A stretch of 64,000 bases of DNA from an uncultured Bacteroidia bacterium (GTDB lineage Bacteria > Bacteroidota > Bacteroidia > NS11-12g > UBA9320). Below, one piece after another: positions 1 to 6,074 of the stretch. Under the pieces are notes generated by a model, which worked only from the letters and a program-made list of their open reading frames with translations, did not search any database and was not told the DNA's origin. The position numbers and the translations under genes are program-made. Location: contig CALSMN010000008.1 of the NCBI GenBank assembly GCA_943787465.1, positions 1 to 64,000 of the forward strand. The letters are read 5' to 3'. Numbering within the stretch: the stretch's first letter is position 1; each line of letters starts with the position of its first letter.

Positions 1-2629
1 GAACATCAAGAAGTTCATAGCTCCACACTTGAGACAGTATATCAGCGTTAAATTTATTTCCTATAATAGATGCACTCTCCAGAAGTCGTCTCCATTTTTC
101 ATCATATTGATCAATAATAGAATGATAAAAACTATCAATATTTTCTGTATTTGGTAAGTAGCTATCATCAATTGGTCTTGATAAAAAATACCCCGCTGGA
201 TCGTAGATTAATATTTTGTCTTTTATCCAACTTTCTATCACCTGAAAGATATATAGCGGTGTTATCTGGCCTATGTTATCATTAGGATCTAATGTTTGAT
301 TAAAAAGATTATTAATTTCATTTAGAGAACTATTTTGGATTTTAAACTGATTATTTTTTTTGCTAAGATTTTTAACAAAATCATTAAGTTTAAAATCTTT
401 TTTATTTAACAGTTTATTTATACTAAAACCAAAGCTTGAATTAGAATTAAGTTCATTTAATTCAGCATATAATTTATCATATGATGGTCCTCTATCTTGC
501 TCATGCACCTTGTTTCTAATGGTTAAAATAATGCACATATTGCCTCTTAAAAATTTATTTCTGTTAACATGCTTTATAAAAGACTTAAAGAATGCATAGC
601 TTTCTTCATCAATCCAATGAATGTCCTCCATTATAAAGATAATTCGCTTTTTATTAGTTTCTAATTTTTCTATGATTTCAATACAAAGGTCTGTTAGAGT
701 TTGGTCTCTACTTTTTGAATATTCATTGATTAATGAGTCTGCTGAAACTATTGAGCTACCAACTTGAACAGCTTTACTCAAAGAATTTTCTATTTTTTGT
801 CCTCTATCTATTGCAAATGCATCTATGTTTAGTAATTTTCTAAATGCTTCTAAAAAGGGTTCATAAGTTGGTGAATTTTCTCCTTGAACCTCATCACAAT
901 CTCCATAATACCAATCCCACCCATTTTTAATAAATCTATTTTTTGATTCAATTAAACTTCTTGTTTTTCCAATTCCTGCAGGACCTGAAATCAACATGAT
1001 GTTTAATTCTTCATCATTAATGTTAGAGGTAATACGATTATAAATATCATTTTCAATATTTATTAAACTATCTACAAAAGGAAACTTTTGGAAATTTTCA
1101 AATTTGATTGAATTTTTAATTTGTGATTTATATCGCTTAATTAAAAAAGAATTGCTGAGGCTATAAACACCATTAAGTGGTAAAATTATAGCAAAAGACA
1201 ATAATAAATTATTAGTATTCAAGCCAGTTAGAATTATTGAATTAAAAATTAGTAATGATATAATTCCAAGAATAAGTCCAATGAATGAAGCCTTTTTTAA
1301 TGCTATATTTTGAGTTGTTGACGAATAATTAAAATATGATTTTGCAAGCAAATCACCAATAATTAATGTAATGAAAACCATAAACAAGTGAGCATATATT
1401 GGGTAATCGTCAAATAAAATTATATAAAATACAAACAAAGGGAAGTAGGATGCATATAGTGATGCATTAGCAAAAAATCGATAACCTTTAAGAGTATGAA
1501 AGCCATCAAGATTCATTCTGTTAACGAAATATAAATTTATTAATGTTGGCATTAAACTCATTCCAAGCGTCAAAAGAGCGATCCATAGTTTTGCTGAAAA
1601 TTCAAGATAATGATCTTCTGGCTCTGGCATTAAATATGATAATGAATAAATTATAAAAAATGATGTTATTGCAGGGATTAAAAAGAACGTTGATACAAAT
1701 CGTATTTTTTTTAAAAATAATTCAATAAGGTCTGTTATTGCGGAGGAACCATTGTTAATTATTTGTCTTATATTCTGATTGAAGAAAGCAAGTGCTGATA
1801 TTAATAAGATTGATTTTAAAAAAAGCAATAATATATTAATAAAGCTTACATGTCTTTTATCATGATTAAAACCTTTTGAATTAAGTGGTTCTGAAAAGCT
1901 ATTTAAATTACTGTAAGTTAGAAATTCTGTTTGAACAAGCCATATTGATTCTTCAATTACATCTAGATCGTCAACTATGAATATTCCAATCTTATCAAGG
2001 TTTAATTTTTCGCAAAGTATAGAAAACATAGATTCATTTAATTCTCCGTTTAAAAGAGATTCTGTTTTATCGTTTCCAAATATTTCTCTTAATTCATTTG
2101 GTTGTAATATATGATGATTTGAGTTTTTATGAATAGTTTGGTTTACGATTTCAAACATTTCATCATTACAATTTTTTCGAATTATTACAGATGTGATATT
2201 GGTGTTTGCGATCGGGACGTTTTGAAGCTCAATGTATTTTGTTGATAATAGTTTTTCAATTGATTCATCATAGGCATATTCAATCGGATCGTCAGCAAAA
2301 CCCATATAATTTGGCAAGCCATTGAAAAACGGGAAGAGCTCAATTTTGTGATTCATATTTTGATCACAAGTAGCCAGCGTTAAATTAATTTTTTCCTTAG
2401 TTAATTTAGCAAATAAATTTTCATTGTCTATTTCAATTATTGAATCACAATAATTACTGGTTAGAGATAAATAATACTTGTTGTTATTTGTATGTCTGGA
2501 TATATAATCAAGTGAAATAACATGCTTTTTGTATCTCTCAATTTTAAGTGAGTCACTTGTGGCTTTTGAATTGATATAATTAAATGATAATATTACTAAA
2601 AGCAGTAATGTTTTAAGATTAGATATCAT
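1..2629 (-). CDS. Membrane-anchored STAND/AAA_16 ATPase with seven TM segments (3' end outside window)
   Basis: Open on the minus strand from ATG 2629 to the window edge with no stop, so at least 876 residues; the C-terminus lies outside. Order read from translation: signal-like N-terminus (about 1-22), an extracytoplasmic region of about 235 residues, seven hydrophobic segments between about 258 and 490, then a P-loop ATPase. Walker A is GPAGIGKT at about 549-556. Walker B is IIFIMEDIHWIDEES at about 663-677, the ED-HW-D form typical of AAA_16/STAND ATPases related to MalT/LuxR and adenylyl-cyclase regulators. No recognised output domain is visible before the edge. The layout (external sensor, 7TM, signalling ATPase) suggests a transmembrane sensor; ligand and output are unknown. 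A TATATTTG -7 element sits 5 bases before the ATG, so the message would be almost leaderless. It lies beside an integrase and a tRNA, so it is probably island cargo. Confidence 0.85.
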   Translation of the reverse strand, partial: MISNLKTLLLLVILSFNYINSKATSDSLKIERYKKHVISLDYISRHTNNNKYYLSLTSNYCDSIIEIDNENLFAKLTKEKINLTLATCDQNMNHKIELFPFFNGLPNYMGFADDPIEYAYDESIEKLLSTKYIELQNVPIANTNITSVIIRKNCNDEMFEIVNQTIHKNSNHHILQPNELREIFGNDKTESLLNGELNESMFSILCEKLNLDKIGIFIVDDLDVIEESIWLVQTEFLTYSNLNSFSEPLNSKGFNHDKRHVSFINILLLFLKSILLISALAFFNQNIRQIINNGSSAITDLIELFLKKIRFVSTFFLIPAITSFFIIYSLSYLMPEPEDHYLEFSAKLWIALLTLGMSLMPTLINLYFVNRMNLDGFHTLKGYRFFANASLYASYFPLFVFYIILFDDYPIYAHLFMVFITLIIGDLLAKSYFNYSSTTQNIALKKASFIGLILGIISLLIFNSIILTGLNTNNLLLSFAIILPLNGVYSLSNSFLIKRYKSQIKNSIKFENFQKFPFVDSLINIENDIYNRITSNINDEELNIMLISGPAGIGKTRSLIESKNRFIKNGWDWYYGDCDEVQGENSPTYEPFLEAFRKLLNIDAFAIDRGQKIENSLSKAVQVGSSIVSADSLINEYSKSRDQTLTDLCIEIIEKLETNKKRIIFIMEDIHWIDEESYAFFKSFIKHVNRNKFLRGNMCIILTIRNKVHEQDRGPSYDKLYAELNELNSNSSFGFSINKLLNKKDFKLNDFVKNLSKKNNQFKIQNSSLNEINNLFNQTLDPNDNIGQITPLYIFQVIESWIKDKILIYDPAGYFLSRPIDDSYLPNTENIDSFYHSIIDQYDEKWRRLLESASIIGNKFNADILSQVWSYELLDV

Positions 2630-2791: not shown

Positions 2792-3988
2792 TTAGTGTAA
2801 AGTGATTTTATTAAGTCTAGCACTTTCATATTGAAGCTTAGAATGAGAGATTTTCGCATAAATCTGAGTTGTCTTAATATTGGTGTGTCCTAGCCAATGA
2901 CTTACCACCTCTATGGGAACATTATTATCCAAGAGTATTGTTGTAGCACATGTATGCCTGGCAATATGATGAGTTAGATTTTTTTTAATACCACATAAGT
3001 TAGAAATAAACTTTAAGTACCTATTAACTCTCTGATTGGTATAGATTGGTAAAACGTTACCTTTTAAGCTTCTAAATTTTGACCAGTTGTATTTATCTAC
3101 AATTGAAATCGCTGGTTTAATTAGGGGTATTTCTCGTCTTTCTCCGGTTTTAATTTGATCTACTCTAATATGAGGTTCATCATTTATAATTTGAATATCT
3201 TCCATTTTTAGATCTATTGCATCACAAAATCTTAAACCTGTGTAACACGAAAACATAAATATATCCCTTACTTGATCTAAAGATTCATTTTTGGATAAGT
3301 CCAAGCTATTCAATTTATCAAGTTCCTCCTTGGTAAGATATTCTCTGTTCCCCTGTGGGAATGTTAGTTTAAAATGGGCATAAGGATTTATATTCAATTT
3401 ACCTCTAGATATAGCATCACTAAGAATGGTTTTAACTCTTGTATGATGCTTATTGATAGAAGTAATGCTTAATCTGTCTCCTTTATTATTCCATATGATT
3501 TGTCTTAAATAGTCATCAAACTTGGCAATAATGGTTAAATCATAATTTTCGAGTGTGATCTTTTGTCTATTATGTTCGGATAGAAATTTAGTAAGATAAT
3601 TTTGACTAGCAAAGTAGAGTTTACTTGTAGCTTGAGACCAAGAGCCATCTTTTAATTTTCTATCTATGTACTCTTGAAAGTATTCTAATAATAAATCCTC
3701 AGATTTTTTTGATCCTAGTAATTGTATTTTAAGATCTTTAGCGGAGTAATTTATTTTTAGTTCATCAAAATTATTTTTTATGCGATAAATTTTCATCTTT
3801 AGATCAGATAGTCTTTGATTAAAAAGCGAGTTTTTATTAAACTCCTCTTTCTTAGGGTTCCAATCTGATTTTTTACAAGGTAAACCAGTTGTAAATTCTG
3901 CTTTTGTTCGGTTAAAGATAATTTGAGCATAAACCTTAAAACCCGATCCAGAACTTTTAACAGGTTTTAAGTAGAACTTAACCGTCAT
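2792..3988 (-). CDS. Tyrosine recombinase (Bacteroidota island/phage integrase)
   Basis: About 398 residues. It has the Bacteroidota integrase layout: an N-terminal arm-binding beta domain (MTVKFYLKPVKSSGSGF onward), a SAM-like core-binding domain in the middle, and a C-terminal catalytic domain. Catalytic residues visible: Arg in YTGLRFCDAIDL, Lys in IKTGERREIPL, HIARHTCAT, and LGHTNIKTTQIYAKI with the nucleophile Tyr. The open frame extends up to a TTG at 4060, but ATG 3988 gives the canonical family N-terminus and leaves the repeats at 4003-4053 outside the coding region, so I prefer it. The gene starts 172 bases from tRNA-Ala and is transcribed in the same direction, the usual arrangement of an integrase beside its tRNA attachment site. 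Together with the STAND gene it marks an integrated element extending left. Confidence 0.92.
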   Translation of the reverse strand: MTVKFYLKPVKSSGSGFKVYAQIIFNRTKAEFTTGLPCKKSDWNPKKEEFNKNSLFNQRLSDLKMKIYRIKNNFDELKINYSAKDLKIQLLGSKKSEDLLLEYFQEYIDRKLKDGSWSQATSKLYFASQNYLTKFLSEHNRQKITLENYDLTIIAKFDDYLRQIIWNNKGDRLSITSINKHHTRVKTILSDAISRGKLNINPYAHFKLTFPQGNREYLTKEELDKLNSLDLSKNESLDQVRDIFMFSCYTGLRFCDAIDLKMEDIQIINDEPHIRVDQIKTGERREIPLIKPAISIVDKYNWSKFRSLKGNVLPIYTNQRVNRYLKFISNLCGIKKNLTHHIARHTCATTILLDNNVPIEVVSHWLGHTNIKTTQIYAKISHSKLQYESARLNKITLH

Positions 3989-4002
3989 TGTTTTTGATGA
4001 AA

Positions 4003-4053
4003 ATGTTTCAGGTGAAACATTTTTATTCTTTAGGTGAAACATAAGTGAAACAT
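4003..4053. repeat. GTGAAACAT repeat cluster between integrase and tRNA
   Basis: Three direct copies of (A/G)GTGAAACAT occur at about 4011-4020, 4033-4042 and 4044-4053. The first copy also pairs with ATGTTTCA at 4003-4010 to make a perfect 8-bp-arm palindrome with a 2-base centre. Copy spacings are 22 and 11 bp, so all copies lie on one face of the helix. This fits integrase arm-type or excisionase/regulator sites in front of the integrase gene; the function is inferred. Confidence 0.6.
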
Positions 4054-4159
4054 TTTGCAATAAAATTAGGAATAAAATAAAAGTTATTGCAACTCTAAAT
4101 GATGTAACTTATTGACAATGAAAGGCTTTGAAAAAGGTCGAAAAACTCAGAAAGGAAAA

Positions 4160-4236
4160 TGGTGGAGAATACCGGATTCGAACCGGTGGCCTTTTGACTG
4201 CCAGTCAAACGCTCTAGCCAACTGAGCTAATCCCCC
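4160..4236 (-). tRNA. tRNA-Ala(GGC)
   Basis: Cloverleaf on the minus strand: acceptor GGGGGAT pairs ATTCTCC (two G-U pairs), anticodon loop CTGGCAG gives GGC, and the T-arm has GGTTCGAATCC. A CCA follows the discriminator A in the DNA; the other tRNAs in this window do not encode CCA. Its 3' end faces the integrase, making it the likely chromosomal attachment site. A TATCTTTG -7 element lies at 4273-4280. Confidence 0.93.
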
Positions 4237-4272
4237 AAGATAAAGTCATAAATACATTGACTTTTTACATTG

Positions 4273-4280
4273 CAAAGATA
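4273..4280 (-). promoter_or_regulatory. -7 promoter element of tRNA-Ala
   Basis: The minus strand reads TATCTTTGCA about 37 bases before the tRNA 5' end, matching TAnnTTTG. The -33 region is T-rich without a clean TTTG. Confidence 0.5.
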
Positions 4281-4329
4281 AAGAATACCTGAAATAAAAC
4301 CCTTTTCTTTTCCTTAATTTGCAGAACGA

Positions 4330-5185
4330 ATGCCAGACACTTATACCATACACAACGATTTTCTTCAAGTACGTATCAAGCGGAAAGGAGCTGAGTTGTG
4401 CTCAGTAAAGAACAATACATATACTGAATTTATATGGCAGGCATCTCCAATCTGGAATCGCCATGCACCAAATTTATTTCCAATAGTAGGTAGTTTGTTG
4501 GATCACGAATACAGATATAATGATAAAAATATAGCTCTTACTCATCATGGTTTTGCTCGAGATATGGATTTTGATATGTTGCATCAAAGTGAACATTCCA
4601 TCTGCTTTATTCTTCAAAATGATGAATTTACATGGAGGAGTTATCCATTTAAGTTTACATTATTAATCACCTTTACTTTAGAGAATAATTCATTGATACA
4701 GTCCTACAGAGTATTAAACACGGATACGAAAACTATTCCTGTTTCTTTTGGCGGACATCCAGCATTTAATGCAAACCCTATTGGTGATTTTGAAATTTAT
4801 TTTGAATCAAATGAATCCATTTATTCTAACATGCTTGATGGTCCATATATAAGTAATCAATTAAAACCAATAATTGTAGACAACAAAATAAGTTTAGATT
4901 TATTTACCTTTAATGAGGACGCTCTAATCTTTCAAAAACTTCAATCCAAATGGGTTAAGCTGGTACATGCAAAATCCTCTTACGCTGTAAAAGTTGATAT
5001 CACTGATTTTCCCTTATCTGGGAATATGGTCAAAACCAGGTGCTCCTTTTGTTTGTATCGAACCATGGCAGGGGCTGGCGGATTTTACTTCACACAATAA
5101 GGATATTTTTTCAAAAAAAGGAATTATCGCTTTGGGGCAAAATCAGGAAATCAATCGTCAATTTAGTATGGAGTTTACGGGATAG
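4330..5185 (+). pseudogene. Aldose 1-epimerase (LacX-like mutarotase), one-base frameshift near the 3' end
   Basis: Galactose-mutarotase superfamily protein of about 285 residues if read across the shift. The first frame (4330-about 5010) carries THHGFARDMDF and SFGGHPAFN, the family histidine motifs. After VDITDFP the frame drifts to a non-homologous tail ending at 5100. The neighbouring frame continues correctly with YLGIWSKPGAPFVCIEPWQG and runs to 5185. It contains FVCIEPW, whose Glu is the expected general base. The lesion is an extra T in the TTTT run at 5007-5010. In the present reading the catalytic Glu is lost. This could be a real mutation or a homopolymer sequencing error. Expected role: interconversion of sugar anomers in the cytoplasm. 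The gene ends 2 bases from the convergent PorD-like gene. Confidence 0.85.
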
Positions 5186-5186
5186 T

Positions 5187-6074
5187 TTATCCTTTGATAC
5201 GATCGTAGTTAGTTGCATTAGATGGGTCTAATTTCCCAAGGATATCAATAGCTCTATTTTTAAGTCCAGGATCAGCTTTGGAAAAAATTTGAATTAACTC
5301 ATCCCTTTTGGCATTAAAAAAAATCTTAAATGTAACAGAATTAGGAACCCGTTCTTGGATGGATCGAATTTTTTCCAATGATGCATATATTTCTTTTCTA
5401 CCCTCATCATTGTCATCTTTGAATTTATCCAAGCCTACCATGTGATATTGGTAAAAACCAGCTCTGTAAACTTTGAATCGATCATCTAATAATTGATCAA
5501 TGATGTAATATTTATTTCTATTTCCTCGACCATCGCTTGGATTCCACCCAGGAACATTTTGGGACATATTCCGTATTTGAAGTGCTTTATTAAAGTAAGC
5601 TTGTCCTCCTTCAGGGGCGTAGGAGTCAAAATCAATTCCAATAATTACGTTGGCATAGAAAGCTAGTAGTGTGGTTAGTGCCATAAGATTGGCATTTTCT
5701 TGATAGTCTAGGCTTTGAAATTGAGCATATTTAAAGAACCATTCTTGATCAAAATGGCTAAAGAGTGTAGTATTATATGTGGTACCATATACGGGACGTG
5801 TACTCGTTATATTTACTTCTGCTTTGAATTGATCAATGTTAAATTCAGTAATATTGATGACAAAATTGCAATTGATTTTTTCTTGTGGTTGTACCTTATT
5901 GCTAATCCAGTTACGTTGATTCATGAACTGATTGATAGCATTTTGTAAATCATCAAAAATATCCTTATTGGTTGCCTGAATCTGGTCTGTTCTAATTTGG
6001 ATATTGCATTGTAAATCTTGTCCCCATGAGATGGAGCAAATTAGAATAAAAACGAGAGTAAAGTATTTTTTCAT
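5187..6074 (-). CDS. porD: DUF4835 family protein, PorD-like T9SS component
   Basis: 295 residues with a cleavable signal peptide (about 1-18, ending SWGQ), so exported. The sequence matches the DUF4835 family by overall pattern: FNIDQFKAEVNITSTRPVYG, a conserved middle with ALTTLLAFYANVIIGIDFDS, then NQ/GWNPSDGRGNRN. This family is conserved in Bacteroidota next to coaBC and is annotated as type IX secretion protein PorD; the precise role is not settled. The start ATG 6074 overlaps the coaBC stop by 4 bases (ATGA), indicating translational coupling in the operon rpoZ-coaBC-porD. Abundant T9SS cargo elsewhere in the window fits. Symbol moderately sure. Confidence 0.82.
   Translation of the reverse strand: MKKYFTLVFILICSISWGQDLQCNIQIRTDQIQATNKDIFDDLQNAINQFMNQRNWISNKVQPQEKINCNFVINITEFNIDQFKAEVNITSTRPVYGTTYNTTLFSHFDQEWFFKYAQFQSLDYQENANLMALTTLLAFYANVIIGIDFDSYAPEGGQAYFNKALQIRNMSQNVPGWNPSDGRGNRNKYYIIDQLLDDRFKVYRAGFYQYHMVGLDKFKDDNDEGRKEIYASLEKIRSIQERVPNSVTFKIFFNAKRDELIQIFSKADPGLKNRAIDILGKLDPSNATNYDRIKG

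What the first reader, a model, noticed from the sequence alone, without database searches (positions are those of the whole stretch)
1..2629. Membrane sensor with a STAND/AAA_16 ATPase, apparent island cargo
The gene combines a signal peptide, about 235 residues of unassigned extracytoplasmic sequence, seven membrane helices and a STAND-type ATPase with intact Walker A (GPAGIGKT) and a MEDIHWID Walker B. STAND ATPases are usually soluble switches in defence or signalling. A seven-helix receptor directly feeding one is an architecture I do not recognise. The external domain has a loose alpha/beta pattern (IELFPFFNGLPNYMGFADDP) that could hint at a TolB/CsgG-like fold, but this is weak. Next to an integrase and a tRNA it could be an accessory sensing or anti-phage system.
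Basis: partly seen in the sequence, partly recalled or inferred. Interest (0 to 1): 0.65.

Follow-up and report, generated by a model that had tools for sequence, protein, structure and literature searches.

The report
Seven-helix membrane STAND ATPase on island
A mobile island in a marine Bacteroidota bacterium carries a rare kind of switch protein that joins a cell-envelope domain and seven membrane helices to an immune-type (STAND) ATPase, and its relatives sit beside outer-membrane and cytoskeleton-like genes, which suggests an undescribed envelope-watching signalling system.

Summary
ORF 2..2629(-) encodes a signal peptide, ~235 extracytoplasmic residues, seven membrane helices and a STAND/AAA_16 ATPase. 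It is cut by the contig end (876 aa; the two full-length relatives that align throughout have 1490 and 1613 aa). The missing C-terminus, read from relatives, is helical and weakly TPR-like; in a divergent branch it ends in a TerB domain. The island is real: a 20-bp att core at the 3' end of tRNA-Ala, serial insertions, an empty site in a congener, and integrases 93-96% identical to the window's beside a core gene that is only 62% identical. The family is rare (5/108 genomes of the order, 3/395 of a class sample, only the window genome in a 395-genome phylum sample). Wherever enough flanking DNA exists, a DUF481-like outer-membrane gene lies on the same contig (6/6), and some loci also hold DUF4407/OmpA/DUF350 or tubulin/vWA/OmpA modules. 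I infer a trans-envelope STAND switch. Direction of signalling is unresolved; an anti-phage role has no direct support.

The parts
2..2629 (-). 7TM-STAND gene, 876 aa of an estimated 1490-1610 (3' part lost at contig end)
   Evidence: full-length relatives L008 (1613 aa), L010 (1490 aa)
2564..2629 (-). signal peptide (aa 1-22)
   Evidence: hydropathy; conserved in position in relatives
1859..2563 (-). extracytoplasmic domain (aa 23-257): three helices, then an alpha/beta domain
   Evidence: AF2 model pLDDT 65.6
1910..2215 (-). alpha/beta core (aa 139-240) resembling LpoB/CsgG/TolB-N fold
   Evidence: pLDDT about 70-88 over most of it; Foldseek LpoB 4q6l E=2.7e-3 prob 0.99
1139..1858 (-). seven membrane helices (aa 258-497)
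545..1021 (-). AAA_16 / STAND P-loop domain (aa 537-695)
   Evidence: Pfam E=1.7e-13
962..985 (-). Walker A GPAGIGKT
608..637 (-). Walker B FIMEDIHWID
2..424 (-). GxP-like motif (ITPLYIFQV, nt 239-265) and start of winged-helix-like segment (LLESASIIGNKF, nt 50-85); cut by contig end
   Evidence: sequence; motif names assigned by eye
2792..4060 (-). tyrosine integrase, 422 aa (Arm-DNA-bind_5, SAM_5, Phage_integrase)
   Evidence: Pfam; 95.8% and 92.7% identical proteins at the same tRNA in G003 and G007
4156..4175 (.). attachment core AAAATGGTGGAGAATACCGG, spanning the tRNA-Ala 3' end
   Evidence: exact copy at L050:11330-11349; variants at L050:12969-12988 and at the C10 tRNA
4160..4236 (-). 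tRNA-Ala (GGC), integration target

Best explanation
The gene encodes an inner-membrane STAND switch that links the periplasm to the cytoplasm. A periplasmic LpoB/CsgG-like domain touches a conserved envelope component, probably involving a partner outer-membrane barrel (DUF481-like). A change there is passed through seven helices to the cytoplasmic P-loop/GxP/winged-helix module, which exchanges nucleotide and oligomerises as STANDs do. The C-terminal helical repeats (TPR-like, or repeats ending in TerB in a sister branch) then recruit the output. It travels as cargo of a tyrosine-integrase island in tRNA-Ala. Shown by computation: topology, motifs, island, rarity, partner linkage in relatives. 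Inferred: partner contact, direction of signalling, oligomerisation, output.
For: Topology and motifs. Outer-domain fold. The outer domain is as conserved as the membrane and ATPase parts (60/59/49% to L007, 45/42/39% to L008), while the C-terminus diverges fastest (L008-L010 15% against 28-30%); this fits a conserved envelope contact better than a fast-evolving foreign ligand. Partner: in six of six genomes with usable flanks a DUF481-like gene, the only copy in five of them, lies on the contig of the STAND gene (product of contig/genome length fractions 1.8e-12). In G008, same genus, the STAND gene is the last gene of a tight run: DUF4407, 399 aa, OmpA, 553 aa, DUF350, 4HBT, FMN glutamate synthase, STAND; gaps are about 13 bp or less and two pairs overlap. 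Island.
Against: In most STAND proteins the N-terminal part is the effector and the C-terminal repeats the sensor, which would reverse the direction. The window's own contig and its nearest relatives (L007, L009) show no DUF481-like gene; their STAND genes abut contig ends. None was found in the whole assemblies G000, G016 and G579 either. L008's DUF481-like gene is weakly similar (21% to L010's; E about 2e-7). DUF481-like genes also occur without this STAND family (12 genomes of the order; for example G053 and G047). Five of the six linked DUF481 genes built the search profile; only G684 is independent. The fold match rests on a three-sequence, moderate-confidence model.
Confidence: 0.5

Rival explanations
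1. Inside-out: the C-terminal repeats sense a cytoplasmic signal (a phage protein or metabolite), the STAND core oligomerises, and the seven-helix plus LpoB/CsgG-like part is the effector that permeabilises the inner membrane or misdirects envelope enzymes.
For: Matches the usual STAND order, effector-NOD-repeat sensor. The C-terminus is the fastest-changing and exchanged part (TPR-like or TerB). Mobile island cargo. CsgG-class domains make pores or activate cell-wall synthases (general knowledge).
Against: A signal peptide and a ~235-residue periplasmic domain on seven helices is more receptor-like; no PADLOC match; few defence genes nearby.
Confidence: 0.3
2. A defence system in the strict sense: it detects phage adsorption or injection damage at the envelope and triggers abortive infection.
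For: STAND ATPases are common in defence; island location; one relative (G106) has a DUF262 HEC-06/Orf5-type gene about 17 kb away and a tubulin/vWA/OmpA module of the kind called a conflict system.
Against: PADLOC negative for the window gene, its integrase and two relatives. A clear defence gene was seen at one locus only, and not every neighbour was scanned. Not found in phage or plasmid collections.
Confidence: 0.15
3. A housekeeping envelope-stress regulator that happens to have been caught in an island.
For: Relatives sit with envelope genes (OmpA, DUF4407, DUF350); PF13191 ATPases are often regulators (general knowledge).
Against: Very patchy: 5/108 of the order, 3/395 of a class sample including the window genome.
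Confidence: 0.1

Closest known systems
STAND NTPases of the AAA_16/MalT type with C-terminal TPR
   Same: AAA_16 match above cut-off, Walker A and B, GxP-like motif and winged-helix-like segment (by eye), TPR-like C-terminus in relatives
   Different: An N-terminal signal peptide, periplasmic domain and seven membrane helices; family members known to me are mostly soluble or linked to kinase or cyclase domains
LpoB / CsgG / TolB-N / PelC / FlgT fold class
   Same: Order of helices and strands; Foldseek top hits
   Different: No sequence match; here fused to membrane helices and an ATPase rather than a lipoprotein or secreted protein
FtsZl1-vWA-OmpA predicted membrane-remodelling system (PMC2875224) and GAP1-N2 tubulin systems (PMC7159879)
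   Same: Two relatives' genomes carry a tubulin-like, vWA-like, OmpA cluster: in G106 on the STAND contig, in G633 on another contig
   Different: Window locus shows none of these; the STAND gene is not described as a component in the passages I read
7TMR-DISM receptors
   Same: Signal peptide, outer domain, seven helices, cytoplasmic output
   Different: No Pfam 7TMR-DISM match; output is a STAND ATPase, not a kinase or cyclase

Membership tests
STAND NTPase (AAA_16 type) | P-loop domain with intact Walker A and Walker B | tested here: met
   PF13191 51.9 bits against cut-off 32.6; GPAGIGKT, FIMEDIHWID
STAND NTPase (AAA_16 type) | GxP motif and winged helix after the P-loop core | tested here: inconclusive
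   ITPLYIFQV (aa 789-797) and LLESASIIGNKF (aa 849-860), assigned by eye; no structure made for this part
STAND NTPase (AAA_16 type) | C-terminal superstructure-forming repeats | tested here: inconclusive
   Window is truncated; relatives give weak TPR matches, best E=0.0017 in L010, below gathering score
STAND NTPase (AAA_16 type) | Nucleotide-driven oligomerisation | not testable with these tools
   needs biochemistry
CsgG/TolB-N/LpoB fold class | Shared fold | tested here: inconclusive
   Foldseek LpoB E=2.7e-3 and 3.7e-3, prob 0.99, and several other class members in the list, but the model is of moderate confidence and no match is below E=0.001; leans towards met
CsgG/TolB-N/LpoB fold class | Sequence-profile match | tested here: not met
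   Pfam and PDB sequence searches with A7
7TMR-DISM receptor | 7TMR-DISM_7TM or DISM extracellular domain match | tested here: not met
   No such match up to E=1
Avs / known defence STAND | Match to PADLOC-DB models | tested here: not met
   no family up to E=1; relatives L010 and L011 none
KAP NTPase | Membrane helices inserted within the P-loop domain; KAP profile match | tested here: not met
   helices precede the domain; no KAP match up to E=1
Integrative island at a tRNA | Integrase, att repeat, empty site | tested here: met
   att core copies in C10, empty site tRNA-Ala/queA in G009, near-identical integrases in G003 and G007; the far end of the window's own element was not found

The most novel reading that the evidence does not exclude
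An undescribed class of trans-envelope STAND machines: an outer-membrane barrel plus, in some loci, OmpA/DUF4407/DUF350 or tubulin/vWA modules, controlled by an inner-membrane STAND with an LpoB-like periplasmic domain, spread by tRNA islands in marine Bacteroidota; it would be among the first NLR-type ATPases to sense, or act on, the cell envelope directly.
Probability: 0.3. Interest if true: 0.8.

Novelty: new variant of a known kind. Interest (0 to 1): 0.52.

Why it matters
NLR/STAND switches are known mainly as soluble sensors. A version wired through seven membrane helices to a periplasmic LpoB/CsgG-like domain would show how such a switch can read or act on the envelope, and would give the orphan DUF481/DUF4407/DUF350/OmpA and tubulin-vWA clusters of Bacteroidota a candidate controller that can be tested.

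Tried and rejected
Recovering the missing C-terminus from the window's own assembly: a search with L008 residues 871-1613 found only the contig edge. Viral contigs, phages and plasmids: no relatives. Sequence-level identity of the outer domain by Pfam and PDB sequence: nothing. First AF2 model (outer domain plus helices, pLDDT 57) gave no significant fold match; modelling the outer domain alone did better. L013 (G173) rejected as a family member: an ordinary cyclase-AAA_16-TPR protein. Defence-island reading: not supported. Known 7TMR-DISM, KAP or Avs membership: rejected on profile searches. Literature searches found no description of this architecture in the open-access library.

Full report
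What is there. The window's first ORF (2..2629, minus strand, 876 aa) is cut by the end of its contig: the window is G000:C8:1-64000 of a 64,224-base contig. It has a signal peptide, an extracytoplasmic part (aa 23-257), seven membrane helices (aa 258-497) and a P-loop ATPase domain. Pfam finds only AAA_16 above cut-off (E=1.7e-13); Walker A is GPAGIGKT (549-556) and Walker B FIMEDIHWID (665-674). A TPLYI motif (aa 790-794) and an LLESASIIGNKF segment (849-860) look like the GxP motif and winged helix of MalT-type STANDs; that assignment is by eye. Hydropathy gives six clear helices and one sub-threshold helix, with K/R-rich loops after helices 1, 3, 5 and 7: N-out, ATPase inside. AF2 also shows seven long helices.

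Relatives and the missing C-terminus. Homologues with the same architecture are L007 (55%), L008 (44%, 1613 aa), L009/G016 (45%), L010/G049 (31%, 1490 aa), L011/G008 (20%, 1547 aa), L012+L019/G106, L026/G633 (1344 aa) and L027/G684 (about 1600 aa, degenerate Walker A). The C-terminus of L010 shows weak TPR matches, and L012 ends in a TerB domain (E=1.1e-6); L011 is homologous to L012 over that region. The window's own C-terminus was not found in the rest of its assembly. The family is rare: 5 of 108 genomes in the order, 3 of 395 in a class sample including the window genome, and only the window genome in a 395-genome phylum sample. It was not found in viral contigs, phages or plasmids.

The outer domain. 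No sequence match exists in Pfam or PDB sequences. An AF2 model of aa 20-262 from three sequences has mean pLDDT 65.6, with most of the alpha/beta part at about 70-88. Its best PDB matches are LpoB C-terminal domains (4q6l E=2.7e-3 and 4q6z E=3.7e-3, both probability 0.99), then GNA1162 (probability 0.82), with CsgG, PelC and FlgT lower in the list. None passes E=0.001, so this is suggestive, but several independent members of one fold class appear.

The island. A 20-bp core, AAAATGGTGGAGAATACCGG, covers the 3' end of tRNA-Ala (window 4156-4175). Contig C10 of the same assembly ends in a stretch 98.6% identical to window 4149-6001, including the tRNA, and carries an exact core copy at L050:11330 and a variant at L050:12969: serial insertions. 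In G003 and G007 the same tRNA is followed by integrases 95.8% and 92.7% identical to the window's, while the neighbouring epimerase is about 62% identical, so the integrase is mobile. G009 has tRNA-Ala next to queA with no insert; G008 has other cargo whose protein fragments are 95-100% identical to those in C10. The far end of the window's own element is not assembled, and the integrase-STAND link is seen directly only here. Integrase fragments of the same type lie at contig ends in L010 and L020, the G049 and G008 STAND contigs.

Genomic partners of relatives. A DUF481-like outer-membrane gene recurs. In whole-genome searches, six genomes with usable flanking sequence (G008, G049, G106, G633, G684, G580) each have it on the STAND contig; it is the only copy in five of them. 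The product of contig/genome length fractions is 1.8e-12; five of these six genes built the profile, so only G684 is an independent prediction. No copy was found in G000, G016 or G579, whose STAND genes abut contig ends, nor in six control genomes of related lineages. Across the order the gene occurs in 15 of 108 genomes; co-occurrence alone is modest (Fisher p=0.019), so physical linkage is the stronger evidence. It also occurs without this STAND: with the DUF4407 module in G053, and near kinase, phosphatase and FHA-type genes (read by eye) in G047. In G008 the STAND gene ends a tight run of genes: DUF4407, 399 aa, OmpA, 553 aa, DUF350, 4HBT, FMN glutamate synthase, STAND. G684 shares DUF4407, OmpA, the ~550-aa protein and DUF350. 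G106 has on its STAND contig, and G633 on another contig, a cluster with a tubulin-like protein (G106: Tubulin_2 E=2e-4, below gathering score), a vWA-like protein named by eye, a ~1200-aa protein and OmpA. This resembles the FtsZl1-vWA-OmpA predicted system (PMC2875224) and the tubulin-type GAP1-N2 systems (PMC7159879).

How it may work. Region by region, the outer domain is as conserved as the membrane and ATPase parts, and the C-terminus changes fastest and is exchanged. I favour an envelope-coupled STAND switch whose outer domain contacts a conserved envelope partner (0.5). The reverse direction, with the membrane part as effector and the C-terminal repeats as sensor, follows the classical STAND layout and stays open (0.3). 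Direct anti-phage function has no specific support.

Verdict. Observation confirmed; interpretation partly supported. This is a new variant of a known kind (STAND NTPases), on a real tRNA-Ala island.

Noticed in passing
window 4149-6001 and G000:C10 end (L050 15447-17300): Two contigs of the same assembly overlap with 98.6% identity, and C10's epimerase copy is broken by frameshifts; this suggests strain variants or a low-quality contig end, and explains why the island is only half assembled.
   Followed up: partly
L050 11330-15457: Tandem attachment cores with small cargo between them (AraC/DoxX-like genes, an esterase-like gene) at tRNA-Ala; the AraC cargo is nearly identical in another species (G008).
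   Followed up: partly
L007 6995-7573, L008 771-1433, L009 1937-2521: A ~200-aa protein family beginning near 'EIYGW', without a recognised Pfam family for the two tested, lies close to the STAND gene in all three nearest relatives that have flanking sequence.
   Followed up: no
L008 8116-8859, L009 2566-3162, L010 10896-11471: A small protein of unknown family near three STAND genes, looking by eye like a PD-(D/E)XK nuclease.
   Followed up: no
L012 3157-4086: A gene weakly matching pentameric ligand-gated ion channels (E=1e-5, below gathering score) directly follows the G106 STAND gene.
   Followed up: no
L073 12031-20000, L074 8350-16525, L011 536-2077: Repeated paralogous TPR-type proteins beginning 'MTSNHLLLYRLAELMLE' lie near DUF481-like genes; family not identified.
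   Followed up: no
L027 7638-11129: A second STAND-like TPR protein (weak Avs2 match, E=7.5e-7) a few hundred bases from the G684 member.
   Followed up: no
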